Assembly: GCA_002049455.2 (NCBI GenBank)
Contig: KV919005.1
Span: forward strand, 57,453-121,452
From: Porphyra umbilicalis
Lineage: Eukaryota; Rhodophyta; Bangiophyceae; Bangiales; Bangiaceae
Direction: 5' to 3'
DNA: 64,000 bases
Shown: one piece after another, positions 28,450 to 59,181 of the stretch
Layout of the letters: each line of letters opens with the position of its first letter
Position numbering within the stretch: position 1 is the first letter of the stretch
The notes under the pieces: model-generated
What the model was told of the DNA's origin: nothing
Database searches by the model: none
The model's input: only the letters and a program-made list of their open reading frames with translations
Made by a program: the position numbers and the translations under genes

Positions 28450-31400
28450 CAGAGAAAATAGAGGATGGCACTGGTGAAGGTCGTGGGGACGTTGGGTGAA
28501 GAGGCAGTCCGCAAAGCCTCTGTCGCAATCAAGCACAGGTGCGGGCAGCCCTCGTTCTTGCACGCGTGGGAGCCCAGGTGCAACTCGCCGCAACGCCGCG
28601 AAACATGTTGCTCTCCATACGCCTCGCCCAGTTCCGACGGACACACCGCACGCCATCACTTTTACTTTTCACTGCATTCTCCTGTGTCGGCGCTCTTCGC
28701 CATGACAGAGGGCAGTGATAGGAAGGAAACGACACACCACATCTTCATGCAACTCCTGGGTCTACGCGGCGCTGGGCGCATTACATGGTGATGAGTTCGA
28801 GACACTTTCGGACGGCCGCGCCGCGAGTGACCGCGCGGCCTTGTCGCAAACAGCTGTCTGAGCCTGCGCCCCTCCACTTGAAACACGGGGGGATGGCAGA
28901 AACGGAACGATACATCGCGGTGCCATAGCCTGCCACGCGTCTAGAGATGGTCGTATCTGTACATATCTCGTCGCTGAGTGAGTACTCAGAGTGAGAGGGC
29001 TACAGCGCTGTGGCCTCAGAGCGAAAAAGCCAGCCACCATCTATGGCCCCAGCGCTGTGTGGAGCAGAGGGCTCCGAGCGAGGTGTTTTCGAATGCCCGC
29101 GATTTCATTGCCGCTGTTTCGATGGCCGGGGTAGTGTGACAAGTGACGCCTGTCCGCCTGAGGAGGGCGCTCGGTGGTGCGATCACGACGGTCCCGTGCC
29201 ATCGTGGACGTGGGACCGAGATGATCCTCCGCTCCGCATCCGAGCCGCGGGCGACCGAAGCAGCGTCGCCCCATTGGTTACGTGACGTAGGAATGGTCAG
29301 GCGGGGCTCCATAGAGGCGCTGTCTGGCGCTGATGGAAGATCAGCTGCGGCGTGCCGCCTGCTTTCGACGCCTCACCTGCCTCGAGCGGGCCGGCAGTCG
29401 GGGAGACGCCGCGGCACAACGAACAGCACGCCACGGCAGGGCGCTTAGTCGAAAGCCCCCGGTCCCGCCGGGCAGACGTGCGGCGGGTGCTCCTGAACAT
29501 GGGGTACAGCGGGACCGGCTGAGGCGCCGCGTCATGGAATGATGCGACAGAATGCACAGAAACGCGCGGAGAAAAGGGCGGTGTAGAAACACATTGACCA
29601 GACGACGCAGCACCCCACACTTGTCCCCAAACCCAACGACCGACACATGGCACGGGACGGAGGAAGGCACGTCACAGCTGCCCGTTTCTCCCGTTGCCGA
29701 CGCCATCGGTGGCGGACGCTCGCGCCGGCGGCGTGCGCCCATCCAGTCCGACGCAGCACGTGACCATGCCCACGCTCGCCCCGCGCCCGCCGCGACTCTC
29801 TACGGGCGGGCTACCCCCCTGGTGGTGCGCCCTGCGGACTATACCCCCGCCGAATTGGCGCCAGAGAACGCCTCCACTGGCACCGGGCGGTGCCCGCGGT
29901 ACCACCGTGCCAGGGGCATGTAGCACGCAGAACCAACGTGCCACACTGTGCAGGCGGCCGGCCGGGCCTCGACCGCGACCAACAGGCGGGCGCCAACACG
30001 GCGGTGCGTGTGGGGGCAGGTGCCACCAACCCGGGTTGGCTTGGGTGCCAACGGCAGCGTCGAAAGGCGCAAAAAAGAGGCGTCGGCGCGACGCGACCGC
30101 TGTGCGGCCCGACACGGCGGCGGCGGCGAACACCGAGGTTGCCACCGCCAGGGTCGGGAGGCGCCTCCGCGGGTCGGCCATGAGCGGCGGCAATGGCGAC
30201 GGTGGCGACGGTGGCAGCGGCGCCACCGCCGCTGTACCGGGTGTGGCGTTGCCGGCGGCGGCGGCTGCGACGCGTGTCGGCTATATGCATCCGACGGCCG
30301 TGGCGGCACAAGCGGGAGGGGGGGAAGAGGCGAACCGCCCACCACCGCCACTGTCGGTGAGGGACAGGGTGCCCGCGCCGGTCAGGAGGCCGGCCGAGAG
30401 GCTGAGCGGCCGAGGTGTCATGCCAGCAACCGTGGATGTCGAGCAGCGGCCATAGGCAGGTACCGCATCCCGCTTGGGCAGGCGGCACGTAGCGGCGGGT
30501 GGGGGTGGAGTGTTCCTCGCGCGGTGGCCGCGGCAGCAGCAGGGGCGGGGGCCAGCCGCCCCCACCGACGAGTGACGGGAACGTCCCAAACATGGGACAG
30601 AAGGCAAGCACGGGCGGGGGCGGGGGGATGGCCGACAGGAGGTCCGCGCCGACGGGTGCAATATCGCCGCACCATGGCCGTGGCGGGCGCGGTCGCACCA
30701 AGCGCCACCATCTAGAACGGGCGTGCTGCCAGCGTGGCATCGGGGGGAAGAGTCAAGGCGGTGGCTCCCCGCCACGGTTGCCCCAGACGACGCGGCCGCT
30801 TCACCCCACCACGGCCGGCGGCCACCGCTGCCGCCACCACTTTGGCCAGGGGGGGGGGACGCGCACACGACCGCCCCAACCCCCCCCCGTCGCCGTGGCC
30901 GGCTGTCAATCGACGGCGGCTGCGGCGGCGGCCGCCCCCGCGTCGCTCCGCTCGTGCCCCACCGCCCCGTGCCGTCTGCGGCGGAGGGAGGCCACGCCAC
31001 CTGCGGGGCGGGGCAGACACGCACGCCCGGGTGGCGGGCGGGCGGGGGTGCCGCCGCGAAAACGTCGGGCGCGTGACCCGAAGTCGATTGGGGGGGGGGG
31101 GATGACGAGGTTGGGCAGGCCCCAGTGTAGGTGGTGCCCATTGAAGGGGGGGGGGGAATGGGCAGAGGGCGCAGCTTGGACGTTTGCGAGGGAAGGGGCG
31201 GGAAACGGGGGGGGGGGGGGATGGCGGGGGGGGGCACGTGCGGCTGGCGGCGGCCGCCCCCGTCCAGGGCCTGCACGACGCCGGCTGGTCGGAGCGGCCG
31301 CGTCGACACAATAATGGGGCGGGCGGCGGGATTTTAGACAGCGGCCGGAAATCCCACAGCCGAGCAGTCTGCTGCGCGCGCGCCCGCCGCCTCCACGCGC

Positions 31401-36563: not shown

Positions 36564-36750
36564 GGGCAGAGAGCTGGGTATTGTCGTGTCGGACCAACGC
36601 ACGGCTTTCGCTCCTTTCCTCAACCCCCCCTCGCTTCCCCACCACATGCTCCGTCCTCCGCCCCCCCTCCCGCGCGTGGATGCTTGAGAACGGGCTGGCG
36701 TCGGCTGGCGTCGTGCGCCGGGGGGCTTCCCGCCGGCGGCACGTGTCGCA

Positions 36751-39700
36751 ATGTCGGACCGTCCCCCCTCGAGAAGGGCGCTCGACAAGGCAACACGGCA
36801 GGCACCAAACTCCACGAGCGCACCACCACGGCGTCGCAACCCGCGAAACCCGCGCGAATGCACCGATTGCAACGCCGCTTTCCCCTCTCGGTCTGCGCTG
36901 GTGTGGCACCGCATCCAAATCCACTTACGTGTTTCCAATGCCGCCGGCGAGATTTCGAGCCGCAGCTCCCCTCTTCGCGGTGCCAATGCCAATAGCGATG
37001 CGACGGGTGGGGACGGGGACACAGGAGTGGGCGTAGACCTGGGCGGCGCGGTGAGCGGGAGCGGGGGAAGCGCGACAGGTGGGGGCGGGGGCGACACACC
37101 GGTTGGGGACGGAGGCAGGCAGGCGTTTGGGGACAGGAGCGTCGCGGCCACCGGAGAGGCGGGCGACGCAGCCGTTAGAGATGGGGCTGGCGTTGTGGGG
37201 GGCTTGGGGGGAAACTCTGCGTGCGGTGCTGCGGGTTGCACGGGCGTCAACGCTGCCGGAATTGCTCCTTGCGATGGGCGCTGTGCGGCTAGCGGCGCTG
37301 CGGGCTGCGCGGGAGCCAACGCGACGGGTGGCCACGGGGGGGACGCTAACGGCACAGTGGAGGGCGGCGCCGCCAAGACAGCGTTTGACCCCGCCAATGA
37401 CCTCAGCGAGGAGTTCAAGCAAGAGCTGCTCGCGTTGATGGAGGCAACACGCGAAGAGGTTGACGAGGAGGAGGCGACCGGGCGTAAGCGGAGGCGTCTG
37501 GCGGCGGGGGCCACGGCTGAGCGCCGCTTCACGTACGCCACCACCTCGACGGCTGTGCGCGCCCTGTACGAAGAGTACGGCGACTGGGAGCGGGCCGAGG
37601 CCGCCGTCAACCGGAGAAAGGGCTTTAGGACGGGCCGCTTCAACTCATTCCGGTTGCGGGCGGTGCAACGCTTTGCACTCAAGAGTGGCGGGGCCGGGTT
37701 ATCGTTGCAGTGGCTGCAAGAGCTCTTCGACCTGTTGGACACGTGGGACGGCACGAAGCCCGGCATGCCGATCGACGACCTGCATGAGCAGCCCATCCGA
37801 GAGGCGTTCAACTCCTGTAACGCGTTCAAAGACGCTGTACGTGATGACGTCGACGACGCGGTGCTCGAGGCTGGGTGGATGAAATGCACTCTGGTGATCG
37901 ACGGCGAGCGCTTCACGGCGCTCTTCCGGCCCGTTCTCCGAGTCGTGTTGGACATGCTGAGAGCGGGAAAGAAGGTGCAGCTGTGGAGCGGTGAGAATGG
38001 GCCCGCATTGCCGACAGACAAACGGGAGACTCCCCTCGACGGGGACGCGTTCCGCCTCAACGAGGCCGCTGTCATGGCCGATAAGAAGGACCCCGCCTGC
38101 TTCGTCCTCGGCTTGCACGTGTACAGCGATGCGAGCCAGCTTTCGTGGTCGGGAGGTACGTTCGTCTGTAGCGTGTGGCGGGCGACCGTGTGAGATGGGT
38201 CTGCATCTGTAACTCGCAGACGCTATGAGCCTTGTGCTAACTCTTTTTTGGTCACCGTCTGCTTCTGTGCGCCAGTGGGGCCAGTCGCATGTCGCTGTGT
38301 CTGCAACGCGCGTAGCTCATAAGCTGTACCCGCTGCGTGTACGCGTTGTCAATGTCGTGACTGGTGACGTTGAGTGGGAACCTATCGCATACATCCCCAT
38401 CGTGAGGAAACAGAAGGAGCCGGCGGCAGAGCGCCGTGCGCGTGCTCGCCGCCACAGCATTCTTCAGAGGGTGCTGTACATGGCATTCCGTACAACCATT
38501 GCTGCCAGCCGGCACGGCGTCAAGCATGAGATGGGAGGCAAGACGTACGTGGCCTTCCCCCGCATCTTACTTTACGTTTGCGATCAGCCCGAGGAGAAGG
38601 CGGTGCTGTGCATCAAGGGCGGTAACTGCAAGTTTCCGTGCTCGTCATGCCTCGTCCCGGCGGATTTGGCGGGAGCCCCGGCCGCCCTGAAGGCGACCGA
38701 GCGAAGTGCAGTGGAGACTCTCAAGCGACAGGTCAACGCAGAGGCCCAAGAGAGGCTCCACCACCAAACGCAGAGCCGTTCCGACTTGGAGGCTCACGAT
38801 AGCGCGCACAGTCGACTGCCCGCTTTAGCTGGCATGTTCGGGCTCTCCACAGATCCTTTCCTTCTCTACAAGACCGTTGGATTCGATTGCTTGCACGTAC
38901 GTGGTAGCCGGTCTGTCTTGTGGGTGGGTGCGTCTCATTCTGCTATTGAGAGTTTTCTGCTGATGTGCAGCTCCGGTCTGACGTCCTGCCTGGTGTTGCT
39001 TTCACGGTTCATTTCGCACATTGGTTGTGTTGTTGCACAGGTCATGGACTTGGGTGTCACCAGGATGCTGGTGCACCGCCTGGTCCGCGTCTTTCCACAC
39101 ATTTGTGACGGGCATTACCCGCTCTGCGAGACGATTGCGGCTACGTTTCGCGTGGCCAACATGCGGCTCGAGTACATGGGGCGTCGTTCTAAGGCCAGCC
39201 ACGTCCCCCCGGGTATGTTATCTGCGGGACACTGACCGCCTCATGCTTCTTCACTTTAGGCTAGATGGTCGAACTAGGGTGACCTGTTGTCTCTCTCGAT
39301 TCTGACCGCGACGAGGATCCTGCAGCACGTTGTGCGCCTTTTCCGCATCCGCCTGCCTGTCATGCTTATCTGTCCGACAGGTACATTGCGTCAGAAAAGG
39401 ACAAACAAGCCACTTTCACCGGGGCTCAGCAGAGGGCGGGTGTCTATGCTCTCCCATTCGCCGTGGACGGCATTTTCGGCTTCGGAAGGCGTCGGCCCAA
39501 GTCGCATGCCAAACCCAAAAAGAACCGCAAGGCTGCGAGCGTCACCCACGCCCAAGACGGTGCCACCGGGGGCGACCTCCTATTTCAACAGGGCGCCTGC
39601 GATGAGGACGACGAGGAGCTCCCCGTCGGATTCTCGTTTGACTGGAAGGCCTACAAAGAGAATTTTGGAGAGACGGCCATTCAAGACGCCGTAACCATTA

Positions 39701-41079: not shown

Positions 41080-41940
41080 GGAGCCCGAAGCGCTCGGTGG
41101 GGGACGTGTCTCTGGCGCCGCGTGGCAGCAAATGGACTAGACTGCGGCAAAGGCACGGGTTTTCGCACGCGCGCGCAAGCGACGCCTCGGCCGCGGCCAA
41201 GTGGCCGGCACGCTCAGCGGGGAGACTGGCCTCTGGCACCGCGTGGCAGCAAATGAACTCGGCAGCGGCAAAGTCACGGGTGTCGGCACGCGCGCGCAAG
41301 CGACGCCTCGGCCACGGCCAAGTTGCCGACGCGCTCAGCGGGGACACTGGTCCCTGGCACCGGGTGACCGCGACGGGACTTGGCATCAGCAAAGCCACGG
41401 GCGTCGGCACGTGCGGGCAAGCGACGCCTCGACCGCGGCCAAGTTGCCGACGCGCTCAGCGGGGAGACTGGTCCCTCGCACCGGGTGACCGCGACGGGAC
41501 TCGGCAGCAGCAAAGCCACGGGCGTCGGCACGCGCGGGCAAGCGACGCCTCGGCCGCGGCCAAGTTGCCGACGCGCTCAGCGGGGCGACTGGTCCCTCGC
41601 ACCGGGTGACCGCGACGGGACTCGGCAGCAGCAAAGCCACGGGCGTCGGCACGCGCGGGCAAGCGACGCCTCGGCCGCGGCCAAGTTGCCGACGCGCTCA
41701 GCGGTGAGACTGGTCCCTGGCACCGGGTGACCGCGACGGGACTCGGCAGCAGCAAAGTCACCGGTGTCGGCACGCGCGGGCAAGCGACGCCTCGGCCGCG
41801 GCCAAGGGGCCGGCGCGCTCAGCGGGGGGACTGGTCCCTGGCACCGCGTGGTCGCGGAGGGACCCGGCAGCGGCGAAGTCACGGGCGTCCGCACGCAAGG
41901 GCAAGCGACGCCTCGGCCGCGGCCAGGTGGCCGGCGCCAG
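41080..41940. repeat. 121-bp tandem array, about seven copies
   Basis: The word GCGCTCAGCGGGG (or close variants) recurs at 41090, 41210, 41331, 41452, 41573, 41694 and 41815, steps of 120 then 121 throughout. Each unit contains GGCAAGCGACGCCTCGGCCGC and a GGGACTCGGCAGCAGCAAAG-like block. Copies in the middle differ at only a few bases. The array begins right after the transposase stop codon, so it is a candidate subterminal repeat of that element. The period is not a multiple of three, so it is not a protein repeat. Confidence 0.9.
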
Positions 41941-43769: not shown

Positions 43770-45800
43770 TGCCTGCGGCCGCCTGTGTGTTGCCGACCGG
43801 ACAAGATGAACGGGTGTACAGAGATCGAGGCCCACAGGGAGCGTCGCCACATCAACAAAAAAATGGAGAAAATTGGTTGTACCACGTTGTCCTCTGTGCC
43901 TCCTGGTCGGCCAACTGACGTGGATTCCGACGGAGGGGCGTGCGCACCATCTCGGCATCGTCCATTGCGCTACACATGGCAGGGCTGGCTACGAGCACGG
44001 AATCAATGTGTCCAACTGTACAGCCGGCCGGCTGGGCCCCAACCCCGATCAGGCGGCGAGCGATGGCGGGTGTGGGGAAAGCGTCAGTCACCCTGGCTTC
44101 GGCATCAGCGGCAGTAACGATGGGCGCTACAATTGGTATCCCACGGCGGGCCTCAATTGACGGACCTACAGGTAGCCGAGAGGACGGGAGACCACAATTG
44201 GCAGTCACATTGGTTGCACTAGCCGGCGCGCGCGCCCCGACGGCTGTCATGGCTCTCTCTCAGGGTGTTTGCATGTGGTTCGGGCCTCCCGCCATGCGGT
44301 AGCCCTGTTGCTCGCAGAAGAGCGACGGTCACACCAATCATCGACGCGCTGGCGGCCGCCGACACCGTCCAGGTGGGATCCGCGGCCGCACCAGCGTCGT
44401 GACCGGTAGCAACCCCCCACTCCCCTCCACCGAACACCACGCCGTCGCCGCAATCGTTGCCGTCGCTCCCGCTGCCGCCGCCGCGTGGCCAGCCGTGCCC
44501 GACGCAGACCATATGGTCTACTCCATGCATGGAGCTCGTCGCCGCCCGGCTTGGATGGACGACCAGCACGCCACCCGCCAGAGCGGCAGTGGCATCGCCG
44601 ACATCGTCGCTTCCAGACGCACGGCCGGCCAAGTGAGGTTGAGCGAAAAAGAAAGCGCGTGGCGCGACCGTCGCCAACAAAGAGGCAGCTTGTGGTGGCC
44701 GCCGCGGCGGTGCCGCCGACCCCCCCCACCGCCCGCCGGCACGCGCGTCACCGCGGCGGCGCGGGCACGCTCCTCAACGTTCCCGCGCCACCGCCGGGGG
44801 CCGCGGCCGCAACGCCGCGTCGACCGCCGCAACCGGCATGCGCCAGCCAGTGCGACCGACCGAGCGCGCGGTCCGTAGAGGCGGCGGCTGCACGCGGTCG
44901 CTGTGCCGTCTGACGCGGCGGCGGCGGCGGCCACCGCAATGGAAACGGCGTCGGTCGGGAGGCGCACCAACGGAACGACGAAAAGGGGACGATATAGCGG
45001 CGCCACCGCCGCTGTGCTCTGGTGGTGGCGTGGCCGGCGGCGGCAGCTGCGCGGCGTGTCGGTAACCACCCGACGGCCGTGGCGATGGTGGCGGGAGGAG
45101 GGGGAGAGGGAGGCAAGACGCTGCTATCGCCGTGGGTGGGGGAAAGGGCGCCCGCGTCATTGCTGTCGGTCAGGCGGCAGGCCGAGCGGCTGGGCGGCGG
45201 AGGTGCCAAAAGAGCGTTGGCGGGTGACGGGAAGCGGGCAGTCGAAGGTGTCACATCCTGTACGTGCAGACGGCATGCAGCGGCGGGCGGGGGAGGCGTG
45301 TGCGCCGCGCGGTGACCGCGGCGGCAGCAGGCGCGGCGGCGAGCCGCAACCGCCAACGGATGAGGGGAAACCCCCAGACCGGGGGCCAATGTCCATCCTG
45401 AGCGGAGTCGGGCGGGTGCCAGACGCGAGGAACCAGCAGGCGGGTGCAACGCCGCCGCTCCGTCGCCGTGACCAGCGCGGTCGCGCCGAGCGCCACGGTC
45501 TGGAACAAGCGCGGTGCCAGCGTGGGGCACAAAGCCGGGCAGGGTCAGGGCGCCTGCACCCTGCCCAGGTTGCTGGGTGCCCACGCAGCAGACCTTGGTT
45601 GGCTGTGAGCAAGAGTGCCCGGCCCATTTCTCGACCTTTTTGGACACGTGTCTGACCAGCGAGACGGTCGCGCCGGAGCACACAAGAGGGAAGCGGTGCC
45701 TCTCTTGCATCCTCCTCCGTCTCCGCTCTGTCGAGCACACAGGGGGACCCATCTACGCCATGCCAAAGCCAACCCCCCCCCTCCCCCCCTCCCCCTCCAG
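43770..45800. other. Intergenic; mostly GC-rich simple DNA
   Basis: No gene supported. Open frames on both strands are compositional. Includes the dispersed GC-rich repeat at 44990-45560. Confidence 0.5.
44990..45560. repeat. GC-rich dispersed repeat, copy B
   Basis: Direct homologue of 30180-30760 (see that entry for the shared landmarks). Confidence 0.6.
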
Positions 45801-45808: not shown

Positions 45809-47472
45809 CTACGCGCCGCCATGGCGCGACGGCCCCGCCATGTAGTTTGGGTCCCGCTCATTCCCCCGCTCGGGCCCCGCGTAAGACCCCCCAATGGGCG
45901 CGCGGCATTCCGGGCAGGTGCCGACCTGGTTGGTCGCCCCACAGTCGCCCACCAAGTACGCGTCGCCGGCCGGGCAGCGGAACATGTGCCCCGCCACGTC
46001 GGCGGGCGTCATGTGGAGCGCCGCAAAGATGGCCCCCTTCTCCGCGACGCTGAGGACGCCCGGCGCGGCTTCGCCTCGCACGCGCGCGCGGAGGGCGGCG
46101 GCCCGCCGCGCCGCGGTAGCCACAAACGCGGATGCAGAGGCGCTCGGCCACGCCGTGAGGGTGGCCCGAAGGTCCGCTAGGGCAGCCTGGAGGCGGTCGC
46201 AGGACTGCTCCTGGCGGGCCACCGCCGCCTCTTGATCTGCCACTGGCGTGGCCGCCGCGGCGCGCAGGTCCACCTCCACCCACCGCTCGAGGAGCACCAC
46301 CCGCCGTTGGGCCACCTGGACGGCGCGGGCGGGCAGGCGCCCCCGGGTGGCCACGTCGGCCGCCGCCGTCAAGGCCGCGCCGGCGGCGTCGAGGTGGACG
46401 GCTGCTGCCGCCCGGCAGTCTGCCGCCGTCTGCGGACCGTGCGCGTGCCCGCAGCCAGCCCCTGATCGCCGGCTACCGGCACCGCCGCCGCGGCTGGCGC
46501 CCGCCACGCGTGACGCAGCGACGGCCGCGTCGGCGGCGACCATCCACGCGTCGGCGGGCGCGCCGAGGTCGGGTGGCGGCAGCGCAATGGCCGCCCGCCG
46601 CCGCGCGGCGGCGGCTACAGCCCCGGGCGACGGCGGCGGCACCGTGGGCGACGCGGCCGCCGCGGCCGCCTGCTCCTCCCGCGTGACCGTCACGAGCGAC
46701 GCGGCGTGCACGCGGGTCGCCGGGTTAGCCGCCTCTGCGTCGCGCGCCAGCGCCCGCGCCGCACCCGCAAGGGTGGCCAAGGCGGCCGTCGCCGCCGTGA
46801 CGCCACAGTCGGCGCACCCGCCGCGGTCGTCTGCCTCGGTACGGCGGGAGCCGTCGAGGCGCGCCTCGGCTTGGCTGGCCACCTCCACCCCCACGTCCAG
46901 GCGCCGCAGCAGATCATTGACGCGGCCCCGAATCAGCCGAATGTGGCCGTCAACCGCCGCATCCAGGCGTGCCTTGGCCCGCGGACGTCCGTAGCGGCGC
47001 ACCTCGGGCGCCTGCCGCCGGCAGGTGGGGCACCCCCGGAGGGCGGACGTGCCCGGCGGCAGCAGACGCGGCTCCGTCCACGCACCCGTCGTCTCGTCCC
47101 GCGCATAGGCGGAGGACAACTCCATCCACCCATCCAGAGTGGACATGAGGAAAACGTGGCCGCAGCCGAGGACAATGAGCGGGTCGGCGTCGAGGTCGAC
47201 CTCCCCGAGGCGCGTCATCATGACAAGATCGACGACCTCGTCGGCCAGCTCTGCAAAGCGCGACCCGCAGACGGCGCAGAAGGCCGGCGGCGGGCACGCC
47301 TCCCCGCATGGCGACGGGCATCGGTGGCCACAGGCCAGCGGTAGGTCGCAACGGCGGTCACACGGGAGCAAGTCACAGGGCGCGCCACAGGGCATTGCAC
47401 AGCGGCCTGGGCCAGCGGCAGCCTCACCCGCCGCCTCCCCCGCCGCCACAACCACCGATGGGGCATCGGCTG
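45809..47472 (-). pseudogene. ZNFX1: C-terminal part of a ZNFX1-type helicase gene, severed by a transposon
   Basis: This is the missing end of the gene whose front part is at 53855-59181. Reading begins at the transposon edge with an Ala-rich linker, then continues the NFX1-type finger series (CAMPCGAPCDLLPC, CDLPLACGHRC). A RING-like module follows (FCAVCGSRF... LGCGHVFLMSTLDGWM ... CPTCRRQAPEVRRYGR), then a long Ala-rich helical stretch. It ends with an RZ-type zinc finger (GHMFRCP, YLVGDCG, CPECRAPIGG), a module known from ZNFX1 and RNF213. Family proteins carry RING-like and RZ modules in this order at the C-terminus. With the insertion in place this piece has no start codon or promoter of its own in frame. 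Its frame is otherwise intact to TAG at 45809. Confidence 0.85.
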
Positions 47473-47503
47473 CCCTACAAGAAATATATCCGCGATATCG
47501 CGG
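47473..47503 (+). repeat. Left terminal inverted repeat of the CACTA-like element
   Basis: Begins CCCTACAAGAAATATATCCG and continues through GATATCGCGG. Matches the inverse of 53824-53854 with about four differences. Immediately preceded by the GCTG target duplication. Confidence 0.9.
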
Positions 47504-48017
47504 AATATGGGACGAAAATCGCGGGTTTCCCCAACCCTCTCAGCAGCACTCCTCCCGCAGGGGGGTGCCAGGGCAGGTAGCCAAACGGGGTGCCTGAAAA
47601 TCGCGGGTCAGTCAGGCCAGTTTTCCTGGGCTCTCCCTGGACAGGAACACAGGAGACCGCGACGGACATGGACAGTGATCCTTCGACTGCATTCGTCGAA
47701 CCGCTGTAAAGACAACCGCATTCCGCGACTTGATGAGGCGGTTCTTTCGTCTCATTGGACGAAGAGCCGTCGGCATGTCTATTTAGTCGGTGCCCCCGTC
47801 GCCGCAGTGCCGGCATTCTCGGGCTCTCCCATCTTGCTGCCGCGCTCGGTGCTGTCTCATCGTCGTCCCCACCGAAAGCTGCCGCGTCGGCGCCCCCGCC
47901 GGACGCTACCTGCCGTCGCCCCTTGACCCCCCTCTCCCCTCAACCCCCCCCCAGTCCCCTGCTACTCCCCTCTTCCGTCCTCCTCACGTCCTCCCCCGGT
48001 CCGTCTACAGGCACAAA

Positions 48018-51000
48018 ATGCCCACTGACAGCCGGCGCCTGTGCGATTGCGACGCCTGTACGGGTGACGGTGAAGACCCTCCCTGTCTGGTGTCCAAGAG
48101 GACATGGTTCCGCCATCAGGCGAACAAGCGGCGCCGGCTGACAGGAGAAAGTGTCTCTGGTGGTGGCTCTGCGGGCCCCACTGGAAGTAACACGGACACG
48201 GACGGGGACGAGCCTCTGGCCGATCTGGCCACCGGCTCTGGGGGGGGGGAGGGGGGGAGACTGCGGGCGCGGACTGTCCACCAGGACCTGATCACACGGC
48301 TGATGGGGGGGCCGCTGCTTGCAGCGAGGATAGCTCCCTCAGTGCCGATCAAGATGTGGATCAGGATGGTGATGACGGCGAGAGCAGTGCGGTGAGTACA
48401 GGCGGGGAGTCTGTGGACTCTACCGACGTGCCACCCGCCGCTTTTGTCGTGGAGGAGCCTGCCGACGAAGCCGGTCCTGCTGCGGAGCTGATTGGGTTGC
48501 CAGACCCTGTAATCCAGGACTCTGTAAGCTCCAACGAGGTACAGCTTCCCGTGACTCAATTTGCCGAGAACGCCGAAGACTTGGCGCTGTTTACTTACTC
48601 TGTGAACCATGATCTCACCGAGGAGGCGTTTGCAGATCTGCTTAAGCTGCGCGCATGCAAGGCTAAGTATCGAACTCCGTACCTCATGAGAAAGTTCATT
48701 GAGGCAAGCGTCAATGTTGAGCGGCGTCAGGTGGACTGCTGCGTCAATGGCTGCGTCGCCTTCACGCACACCCGGTCAGAAGAGACGGTATGTGATGCCT
48801 GCGGTGCTGCACGGTACGCCGCCAACGGGCAGCCGGTGCGGCAAATGACATACTGGCCGCTGACAGGGTGGCTCGTCAATATGCTCAGTGACCCAACTTT
48901 GGGTCCTGACATTATGGCCGGCATGAACAGCGCGCGCCAGGCGGCCGCCGCCTGTGCGGACGGATTGCAAAAGGAGGGACTCCATGACTGGTACCATGGC
49001 CTTGTCTTCCTCGCGGCGGTTCGTGCTGGCCTTTTTACGAAGGACACCGACATTGCTCTCAGCATTTCCACGGACGGTTTTGAGGCATGGCGCCAAGGAG
49101 GATTTCAGGGCTGGCCCATCATTGTGACTGTTCTTAACCTGCCACCAGGTGCAAGGACGCGCAATGTGTGTCAAATTGTCGTGGCCATTACACCCGGGCC
49201 TCGACAGCCTGTCGATCTGGAGTCGTTTCTGCACCCTCTGGCGGAGGAGTTGAACGAGCTGGCGCGGGGCATTCCTGGTGTTCGCGTCGCTGGTACCTCG
49301 GAACCGATTGTCTTGCGGGCCCATCCGGTCCAATTTACGACGGATATGCCGGCTGGCGATAAGCTGCTGAATACGACCGGGTCTGGTGGCTACTCGCCGA
49401 ACCGGGGTCGTGAATTTCACGGGGTGCACCACGCGGCCAGCAACCACCACTACTTTCCTCCGGTGGACCCTACTTGTCCCCATGGAACGGTGCTGTTTGC
49501 TGTTCGCAATTGTACTGTCCCGCGAAGGACGGCCGAGAGCTTCGCCCGTGATGCTGCAGCGGTGGAGGAGGCTCGGGTGACAGGTCGGTCGCAGGCCCAC
49601 CAGAACCGGCTCTCCAAATTGCCAGGGATCAAAGGACACTCGCTGTTCTTTGCCCGGTCTGAGGCAATGCGACTGGCGTACCCGCACCTGACACGCACAT
49701 GGAGCCTTGGTCCCGCCAGGGCTCCGTATGACGTGATGCATTTGCTGTTGCAAAACGTCGCCCCTCTCCTTTGGAAGCTGTTCGCTGGTAAGGTACCGGT
49801 TGAGGGGACAGCTAATGAGGACTATGTGTTGCCTGCAGCAACCGTAGCGCTCATTGGCCGCGAGATGGTCGGGGCACGGCGCACGGTGCCCCGAGCCCAA
49901 GCTCGATCGCTACGCAACATCGACACTCAATTCCGGTCGTTTAAGGCCGTGGACTGGATGTACTGGTTGGTTTCGACTGCTGAAGTCCTGTTGGCGGGTC
50001 GAATTCCCGACTCGCACTACGCAATGCTGAGGACGCTGTGCAAAGCGTGCCGCATCCTCTTCCGTCCCCGCGGCCTCTCCCCACCGGAAATTGACGACGT
50101 CGAGAGTCGACTGCAGCGGTTTGTGCGCCGGTACTACCGCAACGTGTACCGCGGTACCTATGCGCGCCTCCCGTTGTGCCGGTCAGTTATCGCCGCTGTG
50201 CTGGACATCGTGCCAAACATGCGCGCGTGCGGGCCGGCCTGGGTTTCGTGGCAATTCCCGGCGGAGCGTAAAATCGGGGAGCTCGGGCCACTCGTCCACT
50301 CGCACTCCAGCCCGAGCGCCAACCTCACCGCCAGCCTGATGCGACGGACTGAGGCTGAGCTGGTAACGGCGTTTGGGCAGACGTACGCACCGGTGCAGTG
50401 GAGAGAGGCGACCGGCAAGGCGCCGCGGGGCGAAGGCCCCCCCCGCGGTAGCGTCGTGGTATCTGTGGGCGGGGGCGAGGCTGTAACCCTGCTGCCTCCT
50501 CGCTCTGCTGTGGCCCACCTCGCTGACGCAGAGCTGGCCAGCATGCGGGAGGCGCTCGCTGTCGCTGGCGTTGCGGACGTGCCAGCCGCCATTTTGGCGA
50601 TGAAGTTCTTCCGACTCAAGCTTGTGGACGGAAAATTGGCAGGGTCGCGGCCGGCCGGTTCGGACTGTACCAAACATCGCCGCCGCAATTATCTCCTTCG
50701 AATTAATTCCACGGAGAAGCGGCGGCGGTCTGACGGTCAGGAGGTGGACGTGCCTGTGACCACCTATGCTGCGGCACTTCACTACGCCGTTGTGTTTGTC
50801 GATGGAGAACCAATGGCTTTTGCCTACCTCACGCGGATCAAGTCTGCGCGCGACCGGCAAGGGCGCTACGGCTACCCCGCGCAACGCTTTGGGATTGATT
50901 GTTTTTTTAGCGCGGACGGGGTGCGCTACTACGCGCCAGCCGCGTCGCTGGACGCGGTGGTCGGGAGTCTGGAGCGAGAAGGGGTGCATTTTGTGTTGTA

Positions 51001-51031
51001 TGCGCGAGAGCCGTTCTCGGAGGAGCGATAA
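48018..51031 (+). CDS. Tnp2-type (CACTA) transposase with one frame break
   Basis: The ATG at 48018 opens a Cys-rich start typical of Tnp2 proteins (LCDCDACTGDGEDPPCLVSKRTWFRH across residues 8-33). The frame changes at the G-run 48240-48257 (ten G, A, seven G), after which a Ser/Asp-rich linker and the transposase continue to TAA at 51031, about 1000 residues in all. The core shows CCVNGCVAF with CDACGAARY, then a DDE region of the Tnp2 kind: STDGFEAWRQGGF (~49064), VTVLNLPPGAR, VVAITPGPRQPVDLESFLHP, TTDMPAGDKLLNTTGSGGYS (~49336) and YDVMHLLLQNVAPLLWKLF (~49727). A separate C-terminal domain follows. It would cut the element at both ends. The GTGAGTA at 48391 could be read as an intron donor, but no intron is needed there. 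It may be intact if the G-run length is an assembly error. Confidence 0.85.
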
Positions 51032-51455
51032 TCGTCTCTCTGATCTAGGAGCATGGATGTATTGGGTGTGACCAGACAAGAGGGTGCTCATAAAAAGGGC
51101 GGGGTGACCCAATATTGCGGTGGTCTGTTGCCAGAGTGGCCGGGCGTCCCTTCGGATGATCCAAAGCGTCGTGGAAACGACGGAGGCGGACCCGTTGATG
51201 ACTCCCTCCCCAGAACGGGGGTCGAGGATCATGCATTTGACTGCATCAGCGATGCGTGGCGACTAATGTGCATTCGCGGAGCAATCCCACCGAAACGTCA
51301 GAGCCGAGCTATGCACTCACCTGTCACGGTTGGGCACAGGTTTGCTCCTGGATCGCTGTATTTATCTGGTGTCACAGAAATTGGCTGCAGAAAGCTTAAG
51401 TGCGTACTTCCAGCGAGCGGGCTGGAGGTTTCACTCAGTGGGCCACCGTGATCGC

Positions 51456-51539
51456 ACCAAAGCCACACGCTGTCCTGCCACACGACCACCCGCTGGGACC
51501 AAAGCCACACGCTGTCCTGCCACACGACCACACGCTGGG
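51456..51539. repeat. 42-bp direct duplication
   Basis: ACCAAAGCCACACGCTGTCC and the following bases occur at 51456 and again at 51498, with one C/A difference near the end (CACCCGCTGG versus CACACGCTGG). It lies between the two genes of the transposon. Confidence 0.85.
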
Positions 51540-51849
51540 ACTTGGCACACGCTCCCACCAGCCCGCCCACACCCTCACGTCGCCGCTTTCTGTCGAGATC
51601 CTGTCCGCCCTCGTCACCCCCCCGCCCACCTTCCTACACATTCCACCTCATCCCGATCGCTTCTCCGTCCCCCGTCCCCTGCCCGGATTGATTGTTCCAC
51701 CACGCACCACGCCTGTGTGTTTGCTTCCAGACGTACCTTTGCCATCACTTTCCCTTTGGTTTCCCCGCCCCGTCGGGTCCGCCGCTCGGGACCGTACGGT
51801 CCACGTAAGCTTCTAACAGCACCTTTGTGTCAGGCTGACACAGAATACT

Positions 51850-53567
51850 ATGCCGTCTACTCGCAAACGAACGCGCGAGGTGGCTCAAGATCGTACGTTT
51901 GTGAGCTCTTCTTGTTGTATTGTTTGTACTTTCCTTCTCCTGTACCTGCTGTTGAGTTGTTAGTATAGCCGCGACGACCGCGTAGCGTGTCCGGCCCCCG
52001 GTGTTATTTTTCCGCTAACACTATTGTGCTGCTTTTCTTTTTGGCCGCGTTTTGAGCATGGTTTTCGTTTTCAGACTTGGAAGCCAGTGTCGCTGCAGCG
52101 GCGGCGGCTGCCGCTGCTTTTTCCGTCCTTGCAGCCGATGATGGTGACGCCGAAGACGTTGCCCATCGTCCTATTCGTCGGCGCGCTTCCTCAAGAACGG
52201 CGGCGCAACGCCCATCCTCACCTTCACCCGCTATGTCACCTTCTCGTCGAACGCCCCCATCTCCAGCGAGAGCGGCTTTGCAGGCGCATCGTACCCAGCC
52301 GCCTCGCCGGGCTCCTCCGCGGCCGCCGCCGAAGAGGGCGCCGGTGCCACCCCCCAGAGCGGCGGCCCGCCACGCGAGGCTCCCATTGGGAGGTTTATTG
52401 CCAGTGCAAGGGACTAGGGCTCCGGCGGCGAGACTGGATTCCATTCGGGCGGGCGACTCGGACGGTCATGCCACGGATGAAATTTCGTTGGCGGATTCGC
52501 GCCCGCTTGCGCCAAGTGGGGGACGCGCTACCGCGCGGCGCGGGTCTGGCTCGGGGGCTCTGCCCGGGTCGGGCCCGCCCGTTTCAAGTGGACGTCGACA
52601 GGGTGGAACGCCGGGATCCCCGGCGCGCGGGCCTCGGCCGGAGGCGACAAGCAGGCTGGAGGGCAACGCCACGGGCGGGGCCCTGGCTACGTCAAGCGGC
52701 GGACGGCAGGCACCCCCCGCGCCAGCCCCTCCAGTTTTGCCTGGCCCGCGACGGCGCGCGCATCTGCCGCGACCGTCGCGACTTCCCGCCGCAAGCAGCA
52801 CAGGGGGAGGGGCGACCGAGACCCCCTGCCGCTGCCGACAACCGCGCCGCGGTCGGGCCCACACGAACGGCCGCGGCGGGTTTGACCTGCCCGCCGACCC
52901 GCATGCGGTCGCTCGAACACTGGCGGCACCGCCGCCGCCAGTGAACAAGATGCCCGTATTCGGAAACGACGCCGTCGGTATCCCCCCCGACCGAGTGCTG
53001 TTTGTCCGTTCAATCGTGCGGGCGGCAGTCAAAGAGTACTTCACCAGCTACCTCACGTGGGGCTATCAGCACTCGCAGGACATGGAGCAGGCAATCACCT
53101 ACGTGGAGCTGCACGAGCCGCGTTTGGCGGCCTGTGTGCGTTCCTGGGGGGCGTGTGCCCTGCTTTCCCGCGCGATCAACAACAAGGCGGCGCACGTGCA
53201 CGCACGCTGCTGCTCTGAGGATGCACCCGCTTCGTCGACACCCTCGCTTGCCCTCGGAGGGACGAGCCCCTCTCGGGTCGGTGCGAGCGCCGACACTGTG
53301 CGCCCTGCTCGGGCCGGCACTAGGGCCGACGCGACCAGCACCGGCTCGATGCCAGGTCGTTCGCCAACCGGCGCCGCCGGTGCGGGTCAGGTCATTACAG
53401 GCTTGGCCGTCGGTGCAAGCCCGGACGCGAGGGGAATGGGAGGGGGAGGGGGCGGGGACGGCATCCGCGCCCGCGGTGGTGCGGGTGGCCACGCGGGCGC
53501 AACGCGGCGTGGGGACGCCCCGGCCACCAGGACCGCCGAGAATTTCTTTGCTAGCATTAGTAGATAG
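51850..53567 (+). CDS. Second protein of the CACTA-like element (TnpA-like role suspected)
   Basis: Exon 1 (51850-51892) encodes only MPSTRKRTREVAQD. Intron 51893-52074 (GTACGTTT...TTTTCAG) joins it in phase to exon 2 (52075-53567), giving 511 residues. The N-terminus is basic; the long middle is Arg/Pro/Ala/Gly-rich and probably disordered. A folded segment at about 52945-53220 contains VRAAVKEYFTSYLTWGYQHS and RSWGACALLSRAINNKAAH, and the end is Gly-rich, closing NFFASISR. No family is recognised. By position (downstream of the transposase, same strand, inside the terminal repeats) it corresponds to the second gene of CACTA elements such as TnpA of En/Spm, which binds subterminal repeats. 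The ATCGCGG words at both ends would be its candidate sites. That role is an inference. Confidence 0.7.
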
Positions 53568-53823
53568 CTGTAAACAATCGGATATTCCAATACAAGCTGG
53601 CTGAAAGCTGTGGTTGAGAATGTGCTCTGAGATGCTCTCTGGGCCAATGACGCAGAACACGTGGAGGCCTCTCAGCAAATCAAAGTGCCACCGATCGCGA
53701 CCAGAAAATCGCGGAAAAAACCGCGATTATGGTCAGCCAGAAGTTCCGATATCGCGGGTTCTGGCATGCCTCAGAGAACCCGTGAGGGGGGGTCCTACCA
53801 GCGCTTTTGAGCCCCCACTTCAC

Positions 53824-53854
53824 CCCCGATATCGCGGTTATTTTCCTTGTAGGG
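53824..53854 (-). repeat. Right terminal inverted repeat of the CACTA-like element
   Basis: Read on the minus strand it starts CCCTACAAGGAAAATAACCG and continues GATATCG. Followed by GCTG at 53855-53858, the target duplication. Confidence 0.9.
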
Positions 53855-56800
53855 GCTGGCGGCCGCGCCGCCTGGTGCGGGCACGTCCACGAGCACGGCT
53901 CGACGCACGGCACACACGGCTCGCCACACGCCCGCGCGCAGTTGGCGTGCTCACACCCCCGCCCGCATGGGCGGGCGCACGGCGGGCACGGGGAACCCGC
54001 GTGGCACACGGCGCCACACTCGTGGCCACACACTTGCGGCTGTGCGCACTGGAACTGGCACGTCCCGTGGTCGACACGGACGCCATTGGCCGCCGCCGCC
54101 GCCCCGTCCAGCTGCCGGCACGCCGAACACTTGGCGGCGCAGGCGTGGCCACACGCCAACTCCACCCCGCACCGCGCCGTGCAGTAGGCGGGCGAGGTGG
54201 TGTAGCGCCGCTCCCGCGCGATACCGCACGTCACGGTGGCCGTGTGGCCACACAGGGGCATGACCACCGTCACCCGCACGGTGCACCGCAGCCGCCCCGC
54301 CGTTGCGTCGTTGCACCGCACGCCCGTGCGGGTGTGGCCACACGGCAGGGTTACGGACGGCAAGAGCACGGCACGTGGGCCGCAGGGCTCCCCGCACGGC
54401 CGCGGGCACGGGTGTTGGTGCGGGCACTCGGCGACCGGCCGCAGGCGGAGGCAAGGGGCAGCACACGAGGCGCCGGCCGCTGTGTGGCGGCGGTCGTCGG
54501 GGTGGCACCGCCGCGGGCACACGTGGCCACAGTCCATTTGGTAGGTGCACGCGGCGGCGCAGCCGCCGTCGCCGGCCTTGACGTCCCAGTCGGCGGCGGT
54601 CGTCACGGTGACGGCCGTGCCGTGTGGCTGGCACCGCAGGGGTAGGGCCGTGCCGACGCGCCCGGTCTCGGCCAGCAGTCGGCGGACTTGGGTCCACATG
54701 ACGCCGCCGGGCGTGTCGGAACGGCGGGTGAGTGTGCCGACGGAGCCGACCAGGTAGAGGCCGTGTTTGGCACGCGACAGCAGCACGTTGATGCGGTTAG
54801 GGATGCCGAGGAAGCCGACGGCGCCACTTGCGTTGCACCGCACGAGGGAGGCAATGACCACGTCGCTCTCTTCCCCTTGCTGTCGGAGGCACAGACGAAA
54901 AAAGCAAAAGCCAAGGATAGTCACGTCCATGCAGCCAGAGGAAGGAAAAAAGAAAGACCAAATCACGGAGAGAGGGGTGGGGAGCACACGCAATAGCGAA
55001 AGGGAAACAGCGGCCAAGTTAGTGGAGTCTGTTCGAGTGTCGAGCACGCGACACAAGGCGACGGTGCGGCTGCCCAGTACGGGACGCCAACAACGTTCGG
55101 ACTCACCCCGTGGCTGGCCGCACCACCAACGTACAAAGTTGTCCACCGTGGCCACCCGCACTTCCCCGCCACCTGCACCGCCAATCGCAGCCGGCGCAAC
55201 CACCGTCCCCGACGCGCCCGACGCACCAGCGTCTGCCGCCGCCGGCTCGACGAGCGCCTCGAGCGCCTCCCGGTCGCGGTCGTCAATAGCGACCGCCGTC
55301 AGTGACGAGAGCGCCCGTCGCAGCAGCTGCAGCTGCCCGACGTAGCCCGTCAGGACGACCAAGCGGGCCGGTTGGAAGCCCTGCTGCATCAAGTAGCGTA
55401 CCAGGCCAACGACGAGCGCCACCTCCCGCGTGTTGGCGTGGGACCGCCCACCGCCTGCCACGGCGCCACACCGCTGCGGCGCCCGGTCTTCGCGGGCGGG
55501 GTGGTCCCACCAAAAGAGCGGGGCGCCCATCCCGGCGACCGCCGCGGGGTACTCGTTGACACACGGCGCGTCGACGAGCGACGGGTAGACCGTGTCACGG
55601 ATGAGGCTGGCAATGGCCGGCCGCATCCGCCGCTGCGTCGACAGGGCGTGCACGTTGGCGTAGCCGACTACGTCGGCGAGCCGCTCAAAGAGCGACACAT
55701 CCAAGTTGTACCCGCGGCGCCCGCCGACCGACAGCTCATAGACGGTGGTTTTGGGGCGAAGTTGCTTATGGTCTCCTATGAGCAGCAGCTGCTGCACGCC
55801 CCCGTGGAGCGCCGCAAGCGTGTGCGCTTCGGTGACTTCGCCGGCTTCCTCCACCACGACAATGGCGGGGGCCCAGGTGGCGACCAGCGCCTGCACGTCG
55901 GCGGCCTTGGTCGTCGTCGCCCCGACCACGACGGCGGCGTGGAGGGCCGACACGATCTCCTCATCGTCGATGCGCCGCGCTGCGGCGACGGCCTCGTCCA
56001 CGTCGGCGGCGCACGTCGAGACGGCGTCGCGGGCGTCCGCCTCCATGCGGTCGAGCCACCAGCGGACGAGCCGGCGGCGCGTCGGCGGCGGCAACCGCCA
56101 AGCGTCGGGTGATAGCGACAGCGCCTCGAGAGCGTCGTCGTCATTCGTGGCAGCGCCTTGGTCCGCAGCTGCCGCCAGCGGATCGCCCACAGGCGCACGG
56201 CCGTCGGGTCGCCGCTGCACATCACCACCCCGCTGCCAAAAAGCAAAATGCCACTCCGCCGACCGTTGCTGGCGCACCACCTGCCAGCCGTCGTCGCCGC
56301 CGTCGCCGCCATCCGGGTGCGCCGCTGTGGGCGTCTCGGCCGCGCGGGGCGCCAAAGCCGGCAGCTCAAAGGCCGGCACGGGCAGCGGTGGTCCGGCGAC
56401 CAAACTCCCATGCAGTGCCGGGTACTCTGTGGCGAGCCACGCGCCCCACGGCGCCCACGGCGCGACGCCAGCGTGAAGCTGCCGCCGCGCCTCGTGGACC
56501 GCGCCGAGGCGCTTGAGCTCCCCGTTGAGGCCCGCCTTGAGCTCGTCGAGGCGCCTTCGCGCCACCGCGTAGGCATAGCGGAGGTAGCCCGGCTGGCGCT
56601 CGCCCCGCGTCAGCTGCTGCAAGTTGCGGGCGGCGAGCTTCGGGTGCTCCGACGGGCGCCCGAGGCGCACGACCTTGTCAACGCCCCGCTCGAGGAGGCC
56701 GAGCAGGAATTGGTCGAGCGCGTGGTTGGTGTAGGTGACGACGAGGACGCCGCCGAGCGTAGGGGCACGGCGAGGGTGCTCCCCCCCCTCCCTCCCGCCT

Positions 56801-59181
56801 CCCTCACCCCCACCCGCGGCCGCCGTCGACGCAATTGCGCCCGCACCGGCCGTCACGCCCGCCCGCCGCAGCCGCTCGAGCCGCTGCACCAGCAGCTGCA
56901 CGATGCGGATGGAGACGTAGCTCTTGCCCGTCCCCGGCGGCCCCTGCACCAAACACACCGACGTGGACAGCGCGGCGCGGAGCGCGCCGCCCTGCGACGC
57001 GTCGAGGGACGTGGCCTCCGCCAGCGCGGCGGCCGGCCACGCGCCCTCCCCCCCCGCGAGCACGTCGACGGCCGACAGCGCCGCGTCGTGGCGGTCGGGC
57101 GCATCCACCAACACATTCAAGTCGAGCGCCCGTGCGTCGGGCGGCGCGTCGAGGAGGTAGGCCGGCGGCGACGGGCGCGCACACCCGCCGGGCACGGCCG
57201 CGAGGACCGACGGAAAGGGGAGGTGCGGCTCGAGGCGCGCCAGCGACCGGAGCACGGGCGCCGACGCAAAGTAGGCGGCCGCCGCCGAGTGGAGGAGGAG
57301 CAGCTCGGGCGCGGCGCCGCCGCCGTCGGCCGCCGTGGGGGCGAGCGTCGACAGCCACGCGCCGAGGCCCCGCTCCGAGGGCGCCACGGCAATCGACGGG
57401 CCGTGCCACGGGGACCCCGCGTCGGCCGGCCGCCGCAGGGACGGGTCCACGTCGCGCCCGACAATGACGCCAAACGCCACACGCGGCGTCGCCGTGTGGA
57501 GGCCACGCGCGAGGCACACGAGCGTCCCCACGCCGAGCCGCCGCGTCGCGGCGCCCCAAAAGCGTGCCGCCGCCGCCGCGCGCCCCGCCGCCCCCGCCGG
57601 TTGGCAAAACGACACGGCCACGCGCGCGCCGTCGCGGCGGCCAACGTCGACGGCGCCGACGGCCGCGGCGCGGTAGACGGCCACGTCGAGGGCGGCGGCG
57701 GCGGCGGCCGCCGCCGACCCCGCGGGCGCGTCCAGGGGGCACCCCCCCGCGTCGAGCGCCGCCGCCCGAAACGCTTGCAGCGCGTCGCGCAGGGGCGCGA
57801 TCGTGTCCTCCCGCGTCAGCCGGTACACGCGGTCGATGAGTGCCGCGGGGGTGCCCGCGCCCAAGTCCGTGGCGGCCGCCGGGGGGGGGGGCCCAGACGC
57901 GTCCGCCACCGCCGCCGGGGGAAAGGGCAAGTGCGGCGGCGCGACGCAGAGCATCTCGTCGGCCGTCGGCGCAACGGCGATATCCCGCACCTCGTGCGCG
58001 TCATTGTCGTGGCGGGCGCCGCCGACGCGTCCGCCCGGGCCGAGGTCGCCGCCGTCGCCGCCGCCGACGCCGCCGGCTGCCGCCTGGCTGCCGCCCGCCG
58101 GCACCGCCGGATACATCCGCCGCCGCCGCTCGGCCGCATCGGCGGTCGCCCGTGCGTCCGCCGCCCGCGCACGGCGCCGCCCCTCCACGTCAAGGAGTGC
58201 CGCCAGCGGCGCGACCGCCGCCGCCAGCACCCGCTCTTCCGCCGCCGGCGGTGGCGCCGCGGCGCGGGTCAAGGTCCCCGCTCCCCCCCAATCCGCCGCC
58301 CCCTCCACCAGCAAGTGCCCCCCCGCTGCCGCCGCCGCGACAGCAAACAGCGCCGCTCGCCCCGGCCCCACCGGCGGGGTGCCCGGCAGCCGCTCCAAGA
58401 CGAGGGTGCAAAACGCCGCAACGGCGGCGACAATACCCGTCCAGTGGGCGGCGTGGCACCCGACGCCGTCGGGCGGCGCCTCAACGGCCGCCGCCGCGAG
58501 CGACGGGTCGGCCATGACCGCCCCGACGCCCGCAGCGAGGCGGTCCCAAAAGCCCGGCGCCGCCGCGAGCGCCGCCGCCACCTGGTGCACCGCGTGGCGG
58601 ACTGACGAGGAGGCCGCGGCGTCCGCCACCCAGTCGAGCAGCGGCACGACGGTGCGGCCGAGCGTGCGCGCGCCGTCAAAGGCAGACGTGGCGCCGTCGG
58701 CGGCGACCGGGGCAGCGGCGAGCTCCTGCACCCGCGCCAACCCGTACTTGGACGGGTTGATGAGGTCGAGCAGCGCCGCCGTCGGCGCGGGGTGGCCGCG
58801 CAGGGCGCCGACAAAGCGCCGCATTTGGGTGGGCGTGCGGAAGGGGACGGGGCTGTGGAGGGGGCCCAAGCCCGGGGGCGCCCGCGGCGGGGGCGGCGGT
58901 GGCGCCCGCGTGGGCGGCGGCCGCAGCGGCGCAGCGGTCGCCGCCGCCGCCGTTGCGCCGGCGGCGGGCACGCCAGAGGGGGACCCGCCCGACGCCTCGT
59001 GGGTGTACCAACAGCCGGCCCCGAACCGGCACGTGCCCGTGTCTCGAAACGCAAAGCAGATGCCCCCTGCACGGCTGCCGCCGCCACGGCCGGCAGGGCC
59101 CCCCGCGCCACGGCCGCCACGGCCGCCACGGCCGCCCGGGACGCTGCCGCCGTTCGGAACGCGGCCACGGGGCAACTCCAT
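53855..59181 (-). pseudogene. ZNFX1: N-terminal and helicase part of a ZNFX1-type gene, interrupted by a CACTA element
   Basis: The start is the ATG at 59181 (MELPRGRVPN), with a CCCH zinc finger at residues 42-61. An SF1 RNA-helicase core follows: LVQGPPGTGKS (Walker A, ~residue 745), IVVVEEAGEV (motif II, ~1110), GDHKQLRPK (~1135), ALSTQRRMRP, and RINVLLSRAKHG (motif VI). Intron 55134-54880 (GTACGTTG...CGACAG, 255 bases) sits inside the VDNF-QGEESD motif. Without splicing the frame stays open, but the motif is split by 85 foreign residues. NFX1-type Cys/His fingers fill the end. At 53855 the CACTA element begins; the frame runs 58 codons into it and stops at 53680. Joined to 47468-45809 with one GCTG, the gene is in frame (2243 residues). 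ZNFX1 proteins act in small-RNA pathways and antiviral sensing in animals; the role here is unknown. Confidence 0.9.

What the first reader, a model, noticed from the sequence alone, without database searches (positions are those of the whole stretch)
45809..59181. A complete CACTA transposon sits inside the coding exon of a ZNFX1-type helicase, and the two gene halves still match in frame
The element at 47473-53854 has matching CCCTACAAG ends and GCTG on both sides. Removing it together with one GCTG joins codon CCA (53859-53857) to a GCC codon made of the shared GC and base 47468. The NFX1-finger series then continues directly in frame into the RING-like and RZ-type modules. Both halves lack other disabling changes, so the insertion looks recent. 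ZNFX1 proteins work in small-RNA and anti-foreign-nucleic-acid pathways in animals; a transposon breaking such a gene is striking, though any link in this organism is speculation.
Basis: partly seen in the sequence, partly recalled or inferred. Interest (0 to 1): 0.93.

Follow-up and report, generated by a model that had tools for sequence, protein, structure and literature searches.

The report
Transposon splitting a ZNFX1-like helicase gene
In an unidentified GC-rich eukaryote, a jumping gene of a known type has landed inside a gene for an RNA helicase related to animal ZNFX1 and split its code; this is an ordinary kind of mutation, and whether it still matters to the organism cannot be told from DNA alone.

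Summary
A 6,382-bp element (47473-53854) has 31-bp inverted ends (27/31 paired; of 57,618 equally spaced pairs no other exceeds 22), GCTG on both sides, a Transposase_21 transposase (E 6e-9), a second predicted gene and subterminal repeats. It interrupts a minus-strand gene whose right part is a ZNFX1-like helicase (solved ZNFX1 E 1.9e-84, UPF1 5.8e-21) and whose left part ends in an RZ finger (E 1.3e-16). Without element and one GCTG the frame is continuous; 17 of 17 left-half windows keep it. The site lies in an Ala-rich linker. Corrections: ends are CCCTAC, not CACTA; the duplication is 4 bp, or 3 bp plus an asymmetric end; the transposase frame changes at a G-run, so 'complete' is unproved; intactness bounds age only loosely. 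No relative was found in the collections searched; organism and empty allele remain unknown. Most likely an ordinary, fairly recent insertion truncating the gene. A link to transposon defence is untested; splicing rescue through the terminal CTTGTAG acceptor is possible.

The parts
47473..53854 (+). Inserted CACTA-related (Transposase_21) DNA transposon, 6,382 bp
   Evidence: Terminal inverted repeats, flanking duplication, transposase gene
47473..47503 (+). Left terminal inverted repeat, CCCTACAAG...
   Evidence: 31 nt, 87% complementary to the right arm; 27 of 31
53824..53854 (-). Right terminal inverted repeat
47469..47472 (.). GCTG, left copy of the target-site duplication
53855..53858 (.). 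GCTG, right copy of the target-site duplication (alternatively CTG at 53856-53858 with one extra terminal G)
48018..51031 (+). Transposase gene (PF02992 Transposase_21); the N-terminal part from 48018 to about 48240 lies in another frame from the main frame 48191-51031
   Evidence: Pfam E 6e-9, 35.9 bits, cut-off 28.6; frame switch
48240..48257 (+). G10-A-G7 run where the coding signal changes frame: slippage mutation, sequencing error or unrecognised splicing
51850..53567 (+). Second predicted element gene, two exons, 511 aa, no known family; possible TnpA-like partner (inferred)
   Evidence: Predicted intron 51893-52074, 182 nt, GTACGT...CAG, frame continuous to stop; exon-2 frame has no Pfam or NCBIfam match
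47490..47608 (.). Left subterminal ATCGCGG/ATATCGCGG repeats
   Evidence: 4 of 4 window copies of ATATCGCGG and 8 of 14 of ATCGCGG lie at the element's two ends
53708..53837 (.). Right subterminal ATCGCGG/ATATCGCGG repeats
53855..59181 (-). Right (5') part of the host gene: CCCH-like finger (by eye), SF1 helicase core, NFX1-type fingers
   Evidence: AAA_11/AAA_12; ZNFX1 9q9z E 1.9e-84; NFX1-like motif 5 found, 0.115 in shuffles
54880..55134 (-). Predicted spliceosomal intron of the host gene at helicase motif V (255 nt, GTACGT...GACAG)
   Evidence: Removing it gives VDNFQGEESDVV
45809..47472 (-). Left (3') part of the host gene: cysteine cluster with one NFX1-type motif, RING-like cysteines (by eye), RZ-type zinc finger, stop
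   Evidence: ZnF_RZ E 1.3e-16; 17 of 17 windows in frame
47474..47493 (-). Possible splice acceptor ATATATTTCTTGTAG|G at the element's end, able to join in frame with several weak donors
   Evidence: Sequence enumeration only; no RNA evidence

Best explanation
A cut-and-paste DNA transposon related to CACTA inserted into an exon of a ZNFX1-like RNA helicase gene, duplicating 3-4 bp, and split the coding sequence. Shown: inverted repeats, flanking duplication, transposase domain, two gene halves sharing one frame. Inferred: mRNA from the right half reads 58 codons into the element and stops at 53682-53680, giving a protein of about 1,748 aa that keeps the helicase core and five NFX1-type motifs but lacks the last finger cluster, the RING-like module and the RZ finger; the left part is then not translated. 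The insertion is probably fairly recent or polymorphic, because the detached part shows no frameshift or stop.
For: Inverted repeats beyond chance; GCTG on both sides; Transposase_21; subterminal repeats; ZNFX1-like helicase, RZ finger and NFX1-like motifs (home-made pattern) on both sides (right tail 5, shuffled mean 0.115, 0 of 2000 shuffles reach it; left first 120 aa 1, shuffled mean 0.006, 12 of 2000 reach it); continuous frame; the codon model trained on the right half picks the annotated frame in 17 of 17 overlapping left-half windows.
Against: No empty allele, second copy or homologue spans the junction: the solved ZNFX1 chain aligns only with the first fingers. The left half alone matches no ZNFX1 chain in the PDB; its best hits are a protein named SAKe6BC (E 0.0075, taken as chance) and RNF213's RZ region (E 0.09). 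NCBIfam gives no match above its cut-offs, and Pfam listed no NF-X1 finger. The ends are not CACTA, the strict TRC motifs I and A are not met, and no H(3-4)H was found in the expected place. The transposase frame is broken or misread. Rescuing splicing cannot be excluded. The right half's 55 of 55 windows are not independent, since the model was trained on it.
Confidence: 0.82

Rival explanations
1. The gene still works: the element is removed from the pre-mRNA as a new intron, using the acceptor at its end (ATATATTTCTTGTAG|G, 47474) and a donor in the exon or just inside the element. The donor at 53818 would leave 14 extra residues in the linker and keep every zinc ligand.
For: The terminal acceptor is in phase 2 and joins in frame with donors at 53908 (GTGCGT), 53818 (GTGGGG) and others. 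The left half is undecayed. Maize En/Spm has splice sites at its termini (Menssen 1990, seen only as a title in the reference lists of PMC8195511 and PMC4219821).
Against: The donors are weak compared with GTACGT in both introns predicted here, and joining from 53908 would lose cysteines. GT and AG are common, one third of pairs are in frame by chance, and no shuffled control was run. No RNA data.
Confidence: 0.1
2. Assembly artefact or collapsed haplotypes: the element belongs elsewhere, or only one of two alleles carries it.
For: No reads, second locus or genome could be examined. The G-run frame change could itself be a base-level error.
Against: A perfect 4-bp flanking duplication and exact inverted-repeat ends are what transposition leaves, not what a misjoin leaves. 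A heterozygous insertion would still be real.
Confidence: 0.05
3. Old insertion in a gene already lost or dispensable; both parts only look intact because stops are rare in such GC-rich DNA.
For: An antisense frame is open for 829 codons, and the left half has only 101 stop-creating single changes in 553 codons.
Against: The codon-frame signal is unbroken in 17 of 17 windows, so no net frameshift, and the RZ finger still scores 60.3 bits against a cut-off of 27.
Confidence: 0.03

Closest known systems
TRC elements (Transposon Related to CACTA; SmTRC1, Tribolium and Aedes elements; PMC1636069, passages seen)
   Same: Transposase_21 domain; TIR beginning CCC (CCCTAGTAG... in Tribolium); motif I if W is allowed for F/Y; the D-X-M-H core of box A; CXXC
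   Different: TRC duplications are 2 bp (7 of 14 SmTRC1 copies), here 3-4 bp; strict motif I and strict box A are not met
Plant CACTA/EnSpm
   Same: tnp2 transposase domain, subterminal repeats, more than one gene function (passages); terminal CTTGTAG resembles the plant CACTACAAG end (recalled)
   Different: Ends CCCTAC rather than CACTA; duplication not clearly 3 bp
Plavaka (fungal CMCT clade; PMC12730594, passages seen)
   Same: Same wider clade, which has 2-5 bp duplications; a separate Plavaka transposase lies at 38213-39232 in this window
   Different: Plavaka ends are TGT..ACA or CATCA..TGATG; ORF1 here matched Transposase_21, and Plavaka was not listed for it at E 0.1
ZNFX1 (animal NFX1-type zinc finger helicase; PMC11959080, passages seen)
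   Same: SF1 helicase core, NFX1-type fingers, C-terminal RZ finger
   Different: N-terminal CCCH-like finger and Ala-rich linkers (by eye), and the insertion; ARM domain not recognised

Membership tests
CACTA / Transposase_21 superfamily | Transposase_21 (tnp2) domain above the curated cut-off | tested here: met
   35.9 bits, cut-off 28.6, E 6e-9
CACTA / Transposase_21 superfamily | CACTA core at the termini | tested here: not met
   CCCTACAAG; the CCC core suggested for animal TRC elements is met. So not filed as a strict CACTA element, but as CACTA-related
CACTA / Transposase_21 superfamily | 3-bp target-site duplication | tested here: inconclusive
   GCTG (4 bp) or CTG plus an asymmetric end; within the 2-5 bp of the CMCT clade
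CACTA / Transposase_21 superfamily | Repeated subterminal motifs | tested here: met
   ATATCGCGG 4 of 4 in the window at the element's ends
[quoted passage not shown]
   D295, D514, CXXC at 617 and E692 placed by pattern; no H(3-4)H between 514 and 692, though three such patterns lie earlier, at 265, 410 and 414. Structure prediction was too poor to help (mean pLDDT 34.4)
CMCT clade | 5'-CA..TG-3' termini in most cases | tested here: not met
   5'-CC..GG-3' here; the source says 'in most cases'
TRC elements | Transposase_21 motif I and box A as written in PMC1636069 | tested here: not met
   Strict patterns 0 matches; motif I met once W is allowed at the F/Y position; only the D-X-M-H core of box A
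ZNFX1 | SF1 helicase core closer to ZNFX1 than to UPF1, SMUBP-2 and others | tested here: met
   9q9z E 1.9e-84; next, UPF1, 5.8e-21
ZNFX1 | NFX1-type zinc fingers | tested here: met
   First fingers align with 9q9z, E 3e-15; 5 + 1 motifs by a home-made pattern. Pfam listed no NF-X1 finger at E 0.1 or better
ZNFX1 | C-terminal RZ zinc finger | tested here: met
   E 1.3e-16
ZNFX1 | ARM-type fold before the helicase | tested here: inconclusive
   No Pfam match N-terminal of the helicase at E 0.1
ZNFX1 | Orthology and role in small-RNA or antiviral pathways | not testable with these tools
   No eukaryote proteomes, tree or function data at hand

The most novel reading that the evidence does not exclude
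The transposon has disabled a guardian: in this lineage the ZNFX1-like protein helps silence transposons, the insertion removes its C-terminal finger and RZ module, and the surrounding transposon-rich DNA reflects a feedback in which elements break their own repressor.
Probability: 0.06. Interest if true: 0.65.

Novelty: new member of a known kind. Interest (0 to 1): 0.3.

Why it matters
Transposon insertions into genes are common mutations; a lettuce CACTA relative, for example, sits in an exon of KN1 (passage). This one is a clean natural example of a CCC-ended CACTA relative with its target site readable. It would matter more if relatives carry the intact gene and the insertion changes transposon silencing, or if the terminal CTTGTAG acceptor serves as a built-in splice site in this lineage as reported for maize En/Spm.

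Tried and rejected
Looking for relatives: IMG/VR with the transposase (2 stretches matched a peptide pattern, none a relative), the helicase half (no match) and the second gene (33 stretches, none a relative) and with a TIR pattern (0); GTDB contigs with the transposase (69 stretches, none a relative); phage records with the helicase half (no match). The transposase matched no PDB sequence. No second copy of the element in the window. Rfam and tRNA scans: 0 hits, so no help in naming the organism. Transposase structure prediction failed (mean pLDDT 34.4, pTM 0.24), and no fold search was run on it. CCCTACAAG at 43763-43755 was rejected as an element end: by eye it lies at the stop codon of a short frame, and no row ends there. 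An intron that would bridge the transposase frame change was sought (donors scoring at least 3 of 4, 50-400 nt): 8 pairs fit the phase, but six start at 48041 or 48058 and would remove most of the N-terminal region, and the other two start beyond the G-run. One search used a wrong frame for the short N-terminal transposase piece, so nothing is drawn from that row. 24 proteins in all were given to Pfam; the window's other open frames were not searched.

Papers: passages of PMC12730594, PMC1636069 (and its section 9), PMC11959080, PMC2613891, PMC8195511 and PMC4219821 were seen; none was read whole. Other searches gave listings only: (0 papers). ZNFX1 with 'transposon insertion' and 'NFX1-type zinc finger' with transposon and protist gave 1 paper each, unrelated by the listing; so I saw no report of such an insertion in this library, which lacks most subscription journals.
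Full report
Check of the observation. The element's ends are at 47473 and 53854. The inverted arms, 47473-47503 and 53824-53854, are 31 nt long and 87% complementary. Of 57,618 pairs of 31-mers at the same spacing in the window only this one reaches 27 matches, the next having 22; of 400,000 random pairs 3-10 kb apart none reaches 25. GCTG flanks both sides. Because the base after the right inverted repeat is G, the duplication can be read as GCTG, or as CTG with one extra G on the right end; both give the same empty site, so the frame argument does not depend on the choice. A weaker criterion (12-base ends with equal short flanks) gives a long list of pairs in this window, so the long inverted repeat carries the weight.

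The element. The main frame 48191-51031 matches Pfam Transposase_21 (tnp2) at E 6e-9, above its cut-off. Pattern search places a D-G motif at residue 295, D-V-M-H at 514, CXXC at 617 and P-A-E-R at 690. [quoted passage not shown] motif definitions). An ATG at 48018 opens an N-terminal region in another frame, and the codon signal passes from that frame to the main one at the G10-A-G7 run 48240-48257. That is a slippage mutation, a sequencing error or unusual splicing; introns that would bridge it look poor. A second predicted gene, 51850-53567, has one 182-nt intron and encodes 511 aa without a known family. ATATCGCGG occurs four times in the window, all in the element's ends. No other copy lies in the window. 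The ends begin CCCTAC; CCC ends are described for animal relatives of CACTA, and the wider CMCT clade makes 2-5 bp duplications. I therefore call it CACTA-related rather than a strict CACTA element.

The gene. On the minus strand, from the ATG at 59181, the right part holds a CCCH-like finger (read by eye), an SF1 helicase core (AAA_11, AAA_12) and NFX1-type fingers. Its best solved relative is ZNFX1 (9q9z, E 1.9e-84), well ahead of UPF1 (5.8e-21). A predicted 255-nt intron, 55134-54880, interrupts helicase motif V; removing it gives VDNFQGEESDVV. The left part begins in an Ala-rich linker, continues with a cysteine cluster and one NFX1-type motif, a RING-like module (by eye), and an RZ zinc finger (E 1.3e-16), and ends at 45809. 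NFX1-like motifs, by a home-made pattern, number 5 in the right tail (shuffled mean 0.115, 0 of 2000 shuffles) and 1 in the first 120 residues of the left part (0.006, 12 of 2000); Pfam listed no NF-X1 finger. Joined, the flanks read continuously and by arithmetic encode about 2,243 aa. The solved ZNFX1 chain aligns only up to the first fingers, so no homologue tests the junction itself; the left part alone finds no ZNFX1 chain, only a protein named SAKe6BC (E 0.0075, taken as chance) and RNF213's RZ region (E 0.09) among its best hits.

Is it intact, and how old? A codon model trained on the right part prefers the annotated frame in 17 of 17 overlapping windows of the left part, so there is no net frameshift. 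Stops are rare in such GC-rich DNA: the window is 67% GC, and an antisense frame is open for 829 codons. The left part has only 101 possible stop-creating single changes. Intactness therefore excludes, at 5%, neutral divergence only above about 9% from stops alone, or about 1.5-2% if indels are 0.1-0.15 of substitutions, an assumed ratio. 'Recent' is plausible but loosely bounded.

Likely effect. Transcription from the right part would read 58 codons into the element and stop at 53682-53680, giving about 1,748 aa by arithmetic: helicase kept, last finger cluster and RZ finger lost. This is inference. A rescue is conceivable. The element's end supplies ATATATTTCTTGTAG|G on the gene's strand, in a phase that joins in frame with several weak donors; one of them, 53818 inside the element, would add 14 residues in the linker and leave the zinc ligands untouched. 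Maize En/Spm has splice sites at its termini (title of Menssen 1990 seen). Without RNA data and a shuffled control this stays a possibility at about 0.1.

Defence link. ZNFX1 acts in innate immunity and, in C. elegans, in inherited small-RNA silencing (passages). Nothing here tests such a role in this organism, which I could not identify: no genome is held, the Rfam and tRNA scans of the window were empty, and no relatives turned up in the collections searched, which are viral, prokaryote and phage collections. Other transposons nearby show that the region is transposon-rich, which makes one more insertion unsurprising.

Verdict. A real and correctly described insertion of a known kind; a new member, not a new kind of system. 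Interest 0.3.

Noticed in passing
17408-18742: A 1,335-bp element with CCCTACGGGAAAA... inverted ends (25 bp, one mismatch) and a CAA duplication. One overlapping open frame (17111-18079) had no Pfam match. Possibly a non-autonomous relative with the same CCCTAC ends.
   Followed up: partly
36688-39232 (+): Plavaka-type transposase (PF18759, E 1.8e-07, in 38213-39232) with an upstream open frame holding a C2H2 finger match below its cut-off.
   Followed up: partly
11250-12407 (+): Tc1/mariner-like DDE_3 transposase frame (E 1.1e-09).
   Followed up: no
41085-41937: About seven tandem copies of a 121-bp unit.
   Followed up: no
30076-30781 and 44877-45573: Direct duplication, 68.8% identical over 725 aligned positions; the second copy lies just beyond the 3' end of the split gene.
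   Followed up: no
73-329 and 4017-4270: Inverted duplication, 93% identical over 257 aligned positions.
   Followed up: no
55134-54880 (-) and 51893-52074 (+): The predicted host-gene intron and the predicted intron of the element's second gene both start GTACGT.
   Followed up: partly
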